A program made the position numbers and the translations under genes. From Zobellia uliginosa (lineage in GTDB: Bacteria; Bacteroidota; Bacteroidia; Flavobacteriales; Flavobacteriaceae): a stretch of DNA of 64,000 nucleotides. Below are positions 45,512 to 48,997 of the stretch, one piece after another (position 1 is the stretch's first letter; every line of letters begins with the position of its first letter). Under the pieces are notes generated by a model that was given only the letters and a program-made list of their open reading frames with translations, was not told where the DNA came from and made no database searches. The DNA lies in NCBI RefSeq assembly GCF_900156625.1, contig NZ_FTOB01000003.1:496001-560000 (forward strand), written 5' to 3'.

Positions 45512-46408
45512 CTAGGCCATAGGGGTTACGATACCATCACGATTTTTATTCAGTTTCATTTTTACCAAGACCTCGTGCAGGGTTTCGGCCGCCAGGCCAT
45601 GTAATACCAACCTATAGGCTACACTGTACGTGGTAGCGGGCACCATGGGGTGTTTGTTGTTCACTAGGCCCAAATGCCCCGGGGTGTTAATGATTTGCGA
45701 AGTGTAAATGGCTATGGTCTCGTCCAATTGCAATGAATTGGATGCCCGTATAAAGTCGTTCGAGGTCAAAAACAATTGATAATAGGGGGTAAACAACTCT
45801 ATGGCCGACCTAAGATCAAGAAAATTCGTCCATTTTCTCGGAAATTCGATATGGTCGAACTGATCTTCGGTAATCATGTCTAAGTTTATTTTTTCAGGAG
45901 GTTGTATTTTTGTGCCTTTCTGTTTCAACTGATTGTTCAATTGGATCACGAAATTGTACAGGTTCAAGTCGTGCTGTAAAAACAGGTCATCCTTGACATC
46001 TTCAAAGTCCTTTGGTTTTAAAGGATTTCCCACGATTTCTGCTTCGGGAGTGTTCGCCGCTATAAATTGTAAGATCTCGGTTCCAATATGAAAATGCCGA
46101 AAAACGAGCAAATTGGCATCTGGGCTAACGAAGTTTTTGAGTCCCCATGCCAAAATTCGGTGCAATACTTTAGAAGAATTGATAAGGTTGGGAAAGAAGA
46201 ACTTAAAAATGTGGATAAAAAACATAGTTACTTTCGACCACAGGTGTATAATGGGCAATAGGTATCTGGCCGACTTTGAAGCGTTGTCCCGCATTAAGGC
46301 CAACTTCGTAGTTTGGTTTATAGGGATACTTTCATCTAAAAACAGAGCCAACCAGGGGTTGGGATCCCTTTCGTCATGCTTTGATATATCCAAGTTTTCG
46401 TCTATCAT
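45512..46408 (-). CDS. Unrecognised protein in the ketosynthase/HDO operon
   Basis: This is a 298-residue protein that I cannot assign. It has no signal peptide. A long hydrophobic stretch at about residues 50-75 (LPIIHLWSKVTMFFIHIFKF) may be a membrane-associated helix. The rest is mostly helical, with DANLLVFRHFHIGTEILQF and DLFLQHDLNLYNFVIQLNNQ. The His and Glu/Asp residues in these helices could be metal ligands, but no known motif is clear. It is the third gene of a minus-strand operon, 9 bases after the ketosynthase-HDO fusion, so it probably works in the same pathway. Confidence 0.7.
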   Translation of the reverse strand: MIDENLDISKHDERDPNPWLALFLDESIPINQTTKLALMRDNASKSARYLLPIIHLWSKVTMFFIHIFKFFFPNLINSSKVLHRILAWGLKNFVSPDANLLVFRHFHIGTEILQFIAANTPEAEIVGNPLKPKDFEDVKDDLFLQHDLNLYNFVIQLNNQLKQKGTKIQPPEKINLDMITEDQFDHIEFPRKWTNFLDLRSAIELFTPYYQLFLTSNDFIRASNSLQLDETIAIYTSQIINTPGHLGLVNNKHPMVPATTYSVAYRLVLHGLAAETLHEVLVKMKLNKNRDGIVTPMA

Positions 46409-46417
46409 ATCCTCAAT

Positions 46418-48268
46418 TTAATAATTACCTAATTCGTTTAACTGCATGGTGTACAATTTACCTGTAATCTTTGCGGTCTTTACTATTCTCTCGGCTACCT
46501 CCATATGCATTTCCGGGTGGTTCAACGCTTCTTCCAAGTTGTGGAAATGGTTTTCATCGGCCACTCCGTGATAGGTGAAAAAAGAGACCTGATGCTCTTT
46601 CAAATTTAATTGATCCTTGATCATTTCGCCCCAATATCCCGCTAAACGCTTGCCAATACCCTCAATGATAAACATAGACCCCAGTAAATCGACCGGATTG
46701 GGTTTACTGGCCTGTTGAAACATAAAGGAGGTTAGGGCCACGGTACCGATATTCTTTTCCGCTTTCTGGATTGTTTCCAGGTCTTCGCCCAAGGCCACAT
46801 AGTTTCGCTCCAACATTTGATAATCTTTATGCTCGGTGGCGGTGTGTTTTATAAAGGCCGACCGTAGGTCGAAAAGATGGATGTCGATATTTGATGCCGC
46901 CCTTGATATCCATTGGGAACCATCGATTACCTGCTGTCTGAGGTCGGTCAATAATAGTTTGTAATCTGACATGCTAAGGGTGCCTTCGTGTATTTTCTCG
47001 ACTATGGGCACTTTAAGTAAGGCCGTCTCGAAATCTATCCATACTTGGGTGAGGTTCCGGATCAACCATTCGGAAGTCTCACTCTTGTTAATAACCAGTT
47101 CTGGGGATTCAATTTTTCGCAAGGGATACCGTTTGGTGTCGGTATTGTTGTCGCCAACTACGGTGAGTTGCATAAATGAGGTGATAAATCGGCCGCTTTC
47201 AGGCACCATGCACAGGATTTTGTTTCCCGGCACCAACTTTCCGGAGCGCATTAATTCGTCTAACATGATAAAAATGGAGGCAGAGCCTGTATTCCCCTTA
47301 GACGTAAGGTTGCTGAACCATTTCTTATCGGCAATTTCGCCCCCTCCCTTGAGCATGAGCTCTTTAATGGGAGCTTTGAACATTTCCGAAGAATAGTGGC
47401 AGCATAGCCAATCGATTTCCTTCCTGTTTATTCTTCCTTGGTCGATGAGTTCAAAGTAGTGGGCGACCCCGGTTTTTATTACTTTGTCCAACAACCTGGT
47501 GTCTTGTTTTAAGTTAATGGCACCAGCCTTTGAAGCTTCTTCGTAACTCGGGTAGTCCAACCATGTTTTTTCCGTTTCATTTTTGTTGTCCGTCTTCCCG
47601 GTATACATACACACGGGAAATTCGTTGGCATGTGATTTTAAGTCGATCCAATCTATTTTTAAGGAGAGGCCGTTTTCGTTTTTCTTGTTTTGAAGTACAA
47701 AGGCACCTGCACCGTCAGAAAGCATCCATCTTAAGAATTCGGCGTCAAAGGGCAGGTCATCTACACCCTGGGCTTCAAATCGAGGGGCCTTGAACAATCT
47801 ACTGGCCAATTCACTTCCCACACAAACGGCATTCTTTTTTTCATCGCTTTTTATTTGTGCATAGGCATTTTTCAGGGCCATTATACCACTAGCGCATACA
47901 CTTTGAAAATTGGCCACTTCACATCTGTTGAAATCCAATCCCGCATGTACCATACTGGCAAAACCGGGTATGGGGAGGTCGCCTTGGGTCGTTCCTGTGC
48001 ACAACAATTCAACATCACTGCTTCTTAAACCGCTTTTTTGTATGGCATCGTTTATGGCGCTAACGGCCAATTGCGCATTGGAGTGGGTGCTTTCTTGGTT
48101 TTTATCGATTGCATAATGCCTGGTTTTGATTCCGTTTTGTTTCAGTACACGGCTTTTTGCACGGCTATCCTTACCGTTTATTCGGCCTAGGTAATCTTCT
48201 ATTTCGTCATTGGAAATCGCCTTGTTGGGTAAAAAGGAACCTGTACTTGTTATATATACCTCACTCAT
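46418..48268 (-). CDS. Ketosynthase III fused to a heme-oxygenase-like diiron (HDO) domain
   Basis: This 616-residue two-domain protein has a thiolase-fold ketosynthase III-like part in residues about 1-385. Its Cys-His-Asn triad is Cys125 in NFQSVCASGIMAL, His291 in WLCCHYSSEMFKAP and Asn326 in LTSKGNTGSASIF. Residues about 405-616 are an all-helical heme-oxygenase-like domain. Candidate iron ligands are Asp468 (or Glu479) with His475, Glu536 in MFIIEGIGKRLAG, and His567, Asp571 and His574 in YHGVADENHFHNL. The H-x3-D-x2-H spacing matches the HDO proteins such as CADD as I recall them. KAS III enzymes load and condense acyl groups and HDO enzymes do oxidative C-C or C-N chemistry, so the fusion points to a modified acyl product. 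The start is 3 bases after the membrane desaturase gene. Confidence 0.8.
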   Translation of the reverse strand: MSEVYITSTGSFLPNKAISNDEIEDYLGRINGKDSRAKSRVLKQNGIKTRHYAIDKNQESTHSNAQLAVSAINDAIQKSGLRSSDVELLCTGTTQGDLPIPGFASMVHAGLDFNRCEVANFQSVCASGIMALKNAYAQIKSDEKKNAVCVGSELASRLFKAPRFEAQGVDDLPFDAEFLRWMLSDGAGAFVLQNKKNENGLSLKIDWIDLKSHANEFPVCMYTGKTDNKNETEKTWLDYPSYEEASKAGAINLKQDTRLLDKVIKTGVAHYFELIDQGRINRKEIDWLCCHYSSEMFKAPIKELMLKGGGEIADKKWFSNLTSKGNTGSASIFIMLDELMRSGKLVPGNKILCMVPESGRFITSFMQLTVVGDNNTDTKRYPLRKIESPELVINKSETSEWLIRNLTQVWIDFETALLKVPIVEKIHEGTLSMSDYKLLLTDLRQQVIDGSQWISRAASNIDIHLFDLRSAFIKHTATEHKDYQMLERNYVALGEDLETIQKAEKNIGTVALTSFMFQQASKPNPVDLLGSMFIIEGIGKRLAGYWGEMIKDQLNLKEHQVSFFTYHGVADENHFHNLEEALNHPEMHMEVAERIVKTAKITGKLYTMQLNELGNY

Positions 48269-48271
48269 ATA

Positions 48272-48997
48272 TTATTTGTTATGTCTTGAAAATATTTTAT
48301 CTAAAAGGTGTAGGGCAAATCCGTAGTTTTGTCGGCCTCTGCTATGGTGTTCATTATGATGGGTGCCAAAAAGTTTCCAGCCTTTCCCTTTTCCGCTTCC
48401 AAAGCGATAGTTGCAATGTCCCGCAAAATTCAACAAGATGCTTATCAGGGGATAAATAAATATGGCGATTATCGAAAAAGGGATGAAAGGAGCAATGGTT
48501 ACGGGGACCGTGCTTAGTAGAAGGGCCTCTACCCAATGAAAACTGAATACGGAATATACCGTCGGAATCCTAGATTTGTGGTGTACGAAATGTACGTGCC
48601 TCATCATGAATTTTTGATGCATTAACCGGTGTACCAAATAAAAATGAACCTCATTCCACAGGGAAAGGATTACGATTCCGATCAATATATTTGACCACGT
48701 ATTGGGCAAGAGCTCAATTACTCCTTTCCGAATAAGAAAGACGATGGGGATGATGGAAAAACCAAAAATTACAATCGATTTTACGGAGTGCCTGATTTCA
48801 AAGGTGATTTGATCTTTTGAAACGGTTATGGGTTTGATCTTATTGAGGATGCCCCTGCCCTCCAACACCTTGCAAACGAATAAAAACAGCGAGCCTACGC
48901 CAAAGTACAAGGTTATAAAGTAGCCGAAGGTAAGGCCGTATAGTGCTGTATAACTATAATTTAAAATAATGTCTTCAATCAGAGACTCCAAGGGCAA
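48272..48997 (-). CDS. Sterol desaturase / fatty-acid hydroxylase family membrane enzyme
   Basis: This 241-residue integral membrane protein has the His boxes of the family: HFYLVHRLMHQKF, RHVHFVHHKSR and the C-terminal GTHHNEHHSRGRQNYG, with a further H in GHCNYRFGSGKG. These bind a diiron centre that hydroxylates or desaturates acyl chains or sterols. Several hydrophobic helices precede and separate the boxes. It is the first gene of the operon with the ketosynthase-HDO fusion (3 bases between them), so its substrate may be the acyl product of that enzyme. No Bacteroidota promoter was clearly seen ahead of it. Confidence 0.88.
   Translation of the reverse strand: MPLESLIEDIILNYSYTALYGLTFGYFITLYFGVGSLFLFVCKVLEGRGILNKIKPITVSKDQITFEIRHSVKSIVIFGFSIIPIVFLIRKGVIELLPNTWSNILIGIVILSLWNEVHFYLVHRLMHQKFMMRHVHFVHHKSRIPTVYSVFSFHWVEALLLSTVPVTIAPFIPFSIIAIFIYPLISILLNFAGHCNYRFGSGKGKGWKLFGTHHNEHHSRGRQNYGFALHLLDKIFSRHNK

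What the first reader, a model, noticed from the sequence alone, without database searches (positions are those of the whole stretch)
46418..48997. Ketosynthase III fused to an HDO-type diiron domain, with a membrane desaturase
One protein joins a KAS III with an intact Cys125-His291-Asn326 triad to an all-helical domain whose H567-x3-D571-x2-H574 pattern and Glu536 match heme-oxygenase-like diiron oxidases. HDO enzymes make terminal alkenes, cleave side chains or rebuild small molecules. Fused to an acyl-condensing domain and encoded with a sterol-desaturase-type enzyme and an unknown protein, it suggests an unreported acyl-derived product such as an alkene, a shortened acid or a modified lipid.
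Basis: partly seen in the sequence, partly recalled or inferred. Interest (0 to 1): 0.8.

Follow-up and report, generated by a model that had tools for sequence, protein, structure and literature searches.

The report
Ketosynthase fused to diiron-oxidase-like domain
This bacterium carries a small, widely conserved but apparently unstudied gene set in which one protein joins a carbon-ring-building enzyme half to an oxidase-like half, so it probably makes an unknown lipid-like ring compound.

Summary
The minus-strand ORF 46418-48268 (616 aa) joins a ketosynthase with Cys125, His291 and Asn326 to a heme-oxygenase-like domain with Glu536 and His567-x3-Asp571-x2-His574. Two points change. The ketosynthase is not a plain KAS III: its nearest solved relative is StlD, a cyclohexanedione-forming enzyme. 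The diiron reading is partial: the usual Glu...His ligand pair is not seen; an invariant His475-x3-Glu479-x2-Asp482 stands there.

The fusion is not unique. Of 403 confirmed GTDB relatives the best 80 were kept; 78 of these 80 hold both halves in one ORF (two start at contig ends), 78 are followed by a DUF6999 gene, and 60 have a fatty-acid-hydroxylase-type gene directly before. Pseudoalteromonas keeps the three parts as separate adjacent genes. A DarA-like gene, found beside all 9 canonical DarB tested, lies near none of 86 fusion-type sources. Ten paper searches gave no description of the set.

Best reading: a bifunctional synthase whose ketosynthase builds an alkylated ring and whose oxidase half oxidises it, perhaps by decarboxylative aromatisation. 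Product and metal centre are unproven.

The parts
46418..48268 (-). fusion gene: StlD/DarB-like ketosynthase + heme-oxygenase-like domain, 616 aa
47153..48268 (-). ketosynthase half, residues 1-372 (C125 at 47894-47896, H291 at 47396-47398, N326 at 47291-47293, E153)
46421..47113 (-). heme-oxygenase-like half, residues 386-616
46823..46846 (-). H475-x3-E479-x2-D482, invariant in 56 of 56; stands where other HDOs have a Glu...His pair
   Evidence: anchored pattern in 80 of 80 loci
46661..46663 (-). Glu536, candidate metal ligand
46547..46570 (-). H567-x3-D571-x2-H574, candidate metal ligands
   Evidence: spacing kept in 75 of 80 loci
48272..48997 (-). FA_hydroxylase (PF04116) membrane enzyme with HRLMH, HFVHH and HHNEHH boxes; start uncertain (TTG 48997, or TTG 48991 where many relatives begin to align)
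45512..46408 (-). DUF6999 (PF22523) protein, 298 aa, helical model, function unknown

Best explanation
A bifunctional synthase in a compact lipid-type pathway. Shown: the architecture, the conserved residues, the operon. Inferred: the StlD/DarB-like ketosynthase condenses two activated fatty acyl chains from primary metabolism (a beta-ketoacyl and a 2-enoyl thioester) into a 2,5-dialkyl-cyclohexane-1,3-dione, probably still carrying the 4-carboxylate, and hands it to the fused oxidase domain, which uses O2 and a metal centre to oxidise it. The most specific version: the domain does on the ring what UndA does on a fatty acid, removing CO2 and the neighbouring hydrogen together, which turns the 4-carboxy-cyclohexanedione straight into a 2,5-dialkylresorcinol and so replaces DarA. 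The PF04116 enzyme (and in some species an extra PF00487 desaturase) tailors the chains before or after; DUF6999, possibly membrane-associated, does a step that is nearly always kept but unknown. The confidence below is for the general statement (ring-forming ketosynthase plus oxidation of its product); I give the decarboxylative-aromatisation version about 0.2.
Against: The ketosynthase falls below the StlD/DarB cut-off (430.7 against 450) and well below DarB (393.2 against 550), and nine canonical DarB form a separate clade, 100/98 support, so its substrates or product may differ. The HDO ligand set is not the usual one, five relatives have an insertion in the ligand helix, and the fold match of this half is weak where it could be seen (viral library, E 1.3e-3 at best), so metal binding is not shown. 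The FMO case is one genome, 347 bases from the ketosynthase, with a weak DUF6999 match (32.2 bits read across a stop; 21.5 as the ORF, below the cut-off of 27). No substrate, product or phenotype is known. The genome already has a DarB with a DarA-like neighbour, so a second resorcinol route is not needed for flexirubin.
Confidence: 0.45

Rival explanations
1. Alkene or ketone route: the ketosynthase makes a linear, OleA- or FabH-like condensation product and the oxidase domain cleaves or decarboxylates it to an alkene, shortened acid or ketone.
Against: StlD stands far above OleA and FabH by sequence and by fold; beta-keto acids lose CO2 without an oxidase (general chemistry, recalled).
Confidence: 0.2
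2. The oxidase half is an oxygenase that hydroxylates the ring made by the ketosynthase, giving a hydroxy-resorcinol or quinone-like membrane lipid.
For: Possible replacement by an FMO-type monooxygenase in one genome; HDOs include oxygenases (PMC13108848 section 4).
Against: Rests on one genome with a weak DUF6999 match; no product known.
Confidence: 0.15
3. The helical domain is not an oxidising catalyst here: it binds no dinuclear centre and serves as a docking, product-binding or peroxide-protecting module.
For: The usual Glu...His pair is not seen; 2-residue insertion in the ligand helix of 5 of 80 loci; an HDO-like protein, DtpC, acts in peroxide protection (PMC13232832 abstract and the section on its HDO domain).
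Against: E414, H475, E479, D482, E536, H567, D571 and H574 are each invariant in 56 of 56, and all eight also stand in the unfused Pseudoalteromonas protein (alignment).
Confidence: 0.15

Closest known systems
StlD (bacterial ketosynthase; PDB 5gk0, 5gk2) and DarB (dialkylresorcinol biosynthesis)
   Same: Closest by sequence and fold to the N-terminal half; catalytic Cys, His (StlD H302 = H291 here) and Asn kept; Glu at StlD 154 kept
   Different: Here fused to an oxidase-like domain, no DarA-like gene near, separate clade from nine DarB, below the curated cut-offs
Heme-oxygenase-like dimetal oxidases (UndA, CADD/4-aminobenzoate synthase, BesC, SznF)
   Same: PF14518 over cut-off; Glu536 and H-x3-D-x2-H; profile match to CADD-like proteins of this phylum (hhalign 97.7% global, 96.5% local)
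   Different: No Glu...His pair found on the first ligand helix, H475-x3-E479-x2-D482 instead; fused to a ketosynthase
DUF6999 (PF22523)
   Same: 298-aa protein matches the whole profile at 399.6 bits; the 56 relatives aligned (window included) match it too, 56 of 56 at E 0.001
   Different: The family has no known function; no paper in the library holds the name
PF04116 fatty acid hydroxylase / sterol desaturase family
   Same: 79.1 bits against 31; three His boxes
   Different: Matches no specific NCBIfam function over cut-off (OlsE 31.6 bits against 475)

Membership tests
StlD/DarB family beta-ketosynthase (NF005293) | score over the curated cut-off of 450 bits | tested here: not met
   430.7 bits for the fusion, 372.1 for the unfused Pseudoalteromonas protein
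StlD/DarB family beta-ketosynthase (NF005293) | catalytic Cys-His-Asn and StlD-like fold | tested here: met
DarB (NF053539) | score over 550 bits and grouping with canonical DarB | tested here: not met
   393.2 bits; 9 of 9 DarB form a clade of their own, 100/98; control: this genome's own DarB scores 653.8
DarA/DarB dialkylresorcinol pathway | DarA-like partner gene nearby | tested here: not met
   0 of 86 fusion-type sources against 10 of 10 canonical DarB records (9 loci) by tblastn at E 1e-3; the query is named DarA by its place beside DarB, it matches no NCBIfam model at 1e-5
DarA/DarB dialkylresorcinol pathway | cyclohexanedione-forming activity | not testable with these tools
   needs purified enzyme
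Heme-oxygenase-like dimetal oxidase (HDO) | heme-oxygenase-like sequence and fold | tested here: met
   PF14518 30.9 bits against 28.9, 55 of 56 fusions at E 0.001; PDB 3dde 2.9e-6; hhalign 96.5-97.7% with CADD-like proteins. By fold only weakly seen: heme-oxygenase-like viral models rank 5-7 at E 1.3e-3 to 1.3e-2
Heme-oxygenase-like dimetal oxidase (HDO) | Glu and H-x3-D-x2-H on the core helices | tested here: met
   window protein and 75 of 80 loci; 5 of 80 have a 2-residue insertion
Heme-oxygenase-like dimetal oxidase (HDO) | third His paired with Glu on the first ligand helix (3H/3C set) | tested here: not met
   H475-x3-E479-x2-D482 there in 56 of 56; positions +3, +7, +10 from E479 are D, L, N. 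Whether H475 stands in cannot be told without coordinates
Heme-oxygenase-like dimetal oxidase (HDO) | bound dinuclear metal and O2 use | not testable with these tools
   needs protein
DUF6999 (PF22523) | score over the cut-off of 27 bits | tested here: met
   399.6 bits, whole profile
PF04116 FA_hydroxylase | score over 31 bits and His boxes | tested here: met
   79.1 bits; HRLMH, HFVHH, HHNEHH

The most novel reading that the evidence does not exclude
KS-HDO plus DUF6999 defines an undescribed class of bacterial lipid-like ring metabolites, spread over several phyla, in which one protein both closes the ring and aromatises it by an UndA-like oxidative decarboxylation, using an HDO centre whose first ligand helix has His and carboxylate in changed positions (H-x3-E-x2-D), with DUF6999 as a second new, possibly metal-binding enzyme.
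Probability: 0.18. Interest if true: 0.82.

Novelty: new variant of a known kind. Interest (0 to 1): 0.62.

Why it matters
The HDO field has about a dozen characterised enzymes and calls for ways to find substrates of the rest (PMC13108848 sections 4 and 11). Here the fusion narrows that problem: the ketosynthase product should be the HDO substrate, and StlD/DarB chemistry says what to try first. The operon is short, occurs in cultured species (record titles) and would also give a first handle on DUF6999.

Tried and rejected
Plain FabH-type KAS III: rejected, FabH 94 bits against 430.7 for StlD/DarB. Unique or accidental fusion: rejected. Viral origin: the HDO-half scan of viral contigs gave no relative (60 pattern matches, none confirmed). 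Plasmids: DUF6999 in 1 of 72,556 records. The HDO half is in 2 of 196 genomes of the order, own included, so it is patchy among close relatives.

More DUF6999 loci in two classes: 3 of 244 and 1 of 98 genomes, all but one already known, the exception 19.7 bits with four stops inside. Caulobacter vibrioides rings as a control for PF22523 and PF14518, but its locus could not be opened. FabH outgroup for the tree: five rows came out empty or short and were dropped before building; the tree has 28 rows (17 fused ketosynthases) and is unrooted, one row (G389) is very long, and it does not show that the fused ones form one clade. My ORF caller used a minimum of 90 aa, so acyl carrier protein genes near the operon were not tested. 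Literature: ten searches; no listed paper was, by title and start of abstract, on a ketosynthase-HDO fusion or DUF6999, but one search listed 25 of 40 and one search listed 20 of 106 papers. The survey PMC9248904 does not hold the word resorcinol (passages only). Rfam, promoter and tRNA scans were not run.

Full report
Observation. On the minus strand of the window lie three tightly packed genes: a PF04116 membrane enzyme (48272-48997), the fusion (46418-48268, 616 aa) and a DUF6999 protein (45512-46408), with gaps of 3 and 9 bases. Pfam finds both halves over their cut-offs in one protein, and AlphaFold2 models the whole at mean pLDDT 89.8 (pTM 0.67, so the placing of the halves is less sure), with strands and helices to residue 372 and helices only from 397 to 611.

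Oxidase half. PF14518 scores 30.9 against a cut-off of 28.9, and 55 of 56 aligned fusions match it at E 0.001. The PDB profile hit is 3dde, a heme-oxygenase-like structure. hhalign against 13 PF14518 proteins from the phylum (13 of 29 extracted, chosen for an H-x3-D/E-x2-H motif) gives 96.5-97.7%; one of the 13 matches 4-aminobenzoate synthase at 1e-33 and CADD (1rcw) at 9e-33. Over 56 aligned fusions (the window's and 55 of 76 long ones) E414, H475, E479, D482, E536, H567, D571 and H574 are invariant. Other HDOs pair a Glu with a His on the first ligand helix (E143 and H153 in DtpC; an E-E-x5-H stretch in the CADD-like proteins). Here that helix holds H475-x3-E479-x2-D482, in 80 of 80 loci by an anchored pattern, and +3, +7 and +10 from E479 are D, L and N. 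So either H475 stands in for the missing His, or the centre has only two. Five loci (L088, L092, L093, L095, L096) carry two extra residues between D571 and H574. Metal binding is therefore likely but unproven.

Spread and operon. A scan of GTDB contigs with the HDO half found 481 pattern matches, 403 of them confirmed relatives; the best 80 were kept, by their titles mostly Bacteroidota, with two Paenibacillus and one each of Neomarinimicrobiota, Kapaibacterium and Chlorobiales. Both halves lie in one ORF in 78 of 80 (76 of 600 aa or more); L066 and L085 start inside the gene. An ORF of the DUF6999 cluster lies within the next two ORFs on the same strand in 78 of 80; the two others end 784 and 458 bases downstream. 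All 56 of those aligned match PF22523. An ORF of the PF04116 cluster is directly upstream in 60 of 80 (family checked for the window and L092 only); of the 20 others four have under 700 bases upstream, and L084 has it a few genes away. In 11 of 80 a further ORF follows the fusion, before DUF6999 where the contig goes on; three of the 11, sent to Pfam, are PF00487 fatty acid desaturases. Beyond these four clusters the most frequent ORF family occurs in 9 of 85 sources (the 85 include duplicates, e.g. L008/L056 and L015/L094). Taken the other way, DUF6999 was found in 4 of 395 genomes of the phylum, and all four lie beside a StlD/DarB-like ketosynthase, fused to the HDO half in three.

DarA. Beside this genome's own canonical DarB (653.8 bits, over cut-off) lies a DarA-like gene, named so by its place; no NCBIfam model matches it at 1e-5. 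By tblastn it finds a relative in 10 of 10 canonical DarB records (nine loci; flanks of 1.5 kb in nine of the records) and in 0 of 86 fusion-type sources.

Variants that inform. On a Pseudoalteromonas plasmid the three parts are separate neighbours in the same order: ketosynthase, iron-containing redox enzyme (record annotation) and DUF6999 (321.9 bits), preceded by a small His-rich membrane protein without a Pfam match. Its oxidase-like protein does not reach PF14518 at E 0.1 but keeps all eight conserved residues. In genome G389 a DUF6999-like gene (32.2 bits read across a stop, 21.5 as the ORF) and an unfused ketosynthase (279.6 bits to StlD/DarB) are followed by an FMO-like monooxygenase and no HDO. 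One weak case is only a lead, but it fits an oxidation step after the ketosynthase.

DUF6999. The model is confident (pLDDT 84.5, pTM 0.85) and almost all helical, without a PDB match by Foldseek or VIA that stands out. R104, H105, H146, D147, D198, D229, E230, H253, H270 and E275 are among the residues invariant in 56 of 56; one stretch from residue 50 is hydrophobic (1.56 over 19 residues), so membrane association is possible. A metal site is speculation.

Mechanism. DarB condenses a beta-ketoacyl with a 2-enoyl unit to a 4-carboxy-2,5-dialkylcyclohexane-1,3-dione (PMC5515871, passages), and DarA is listed as the aromatase (PMC3949708, passages); darA mutants of Pseudomonas chlororaphis make no alkylresorcinol (PMC6403133, passages). 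Here the DarA-like gene is absent and an oxidase domain is fused on. UndA turns fatty acids into 1-alkenes and CO2 (PMC13108848 section 7). Applied to C4-carboxylate and C5-H of the DarB-type acid, the same reaction gives the ring double bond that makes a resorcinol. This is my inference; neither substrate nor product was tested.

Verdict. Its parts lie near known kinds; their combination and its product are undescribed in the papers searched.

Noticed in passing
L009 9488-11554 (own genome, contig C7): The same genome holds a canonical DarB (653.8 bits, over cut-off) beside a DarA-like gene, in a cluster whose ORFs look like aryl-polyene/flexirubin synthesis (my reading of the ORFs).
   Followed up: partly
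L016 1404-5132: DUF6999-like gene, unfused StlD/DarB-like ketosynthase and FMO-like monooxygenase on one strand, no HDO: possible swap of oxidase type.
   Followed up: partly
L097 7612-8178: Small membrane protein with many His (HEVVAH, EMHAH) ahead of the unfused Pseudoalteromonas set, where most Bacteroidota loci have the PF04116 enzyme; no Pfam match.
   Followed up: partly
L055 and L060: One strain, Flagellimonas algicola AsT0115, has two fusion loci.
   Followed up: no
L088, L092, L093, L095, L096: Two-residue insertion between D571 and H574 in the ligand helix of five relatives.
   Followed up: partly
L025 8705-9600: DUF6999 of Cyclobacterium qasimii appears split into two ORFs (175 and 125 aa), a frameshift or sequencing error.
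   Followed up: no
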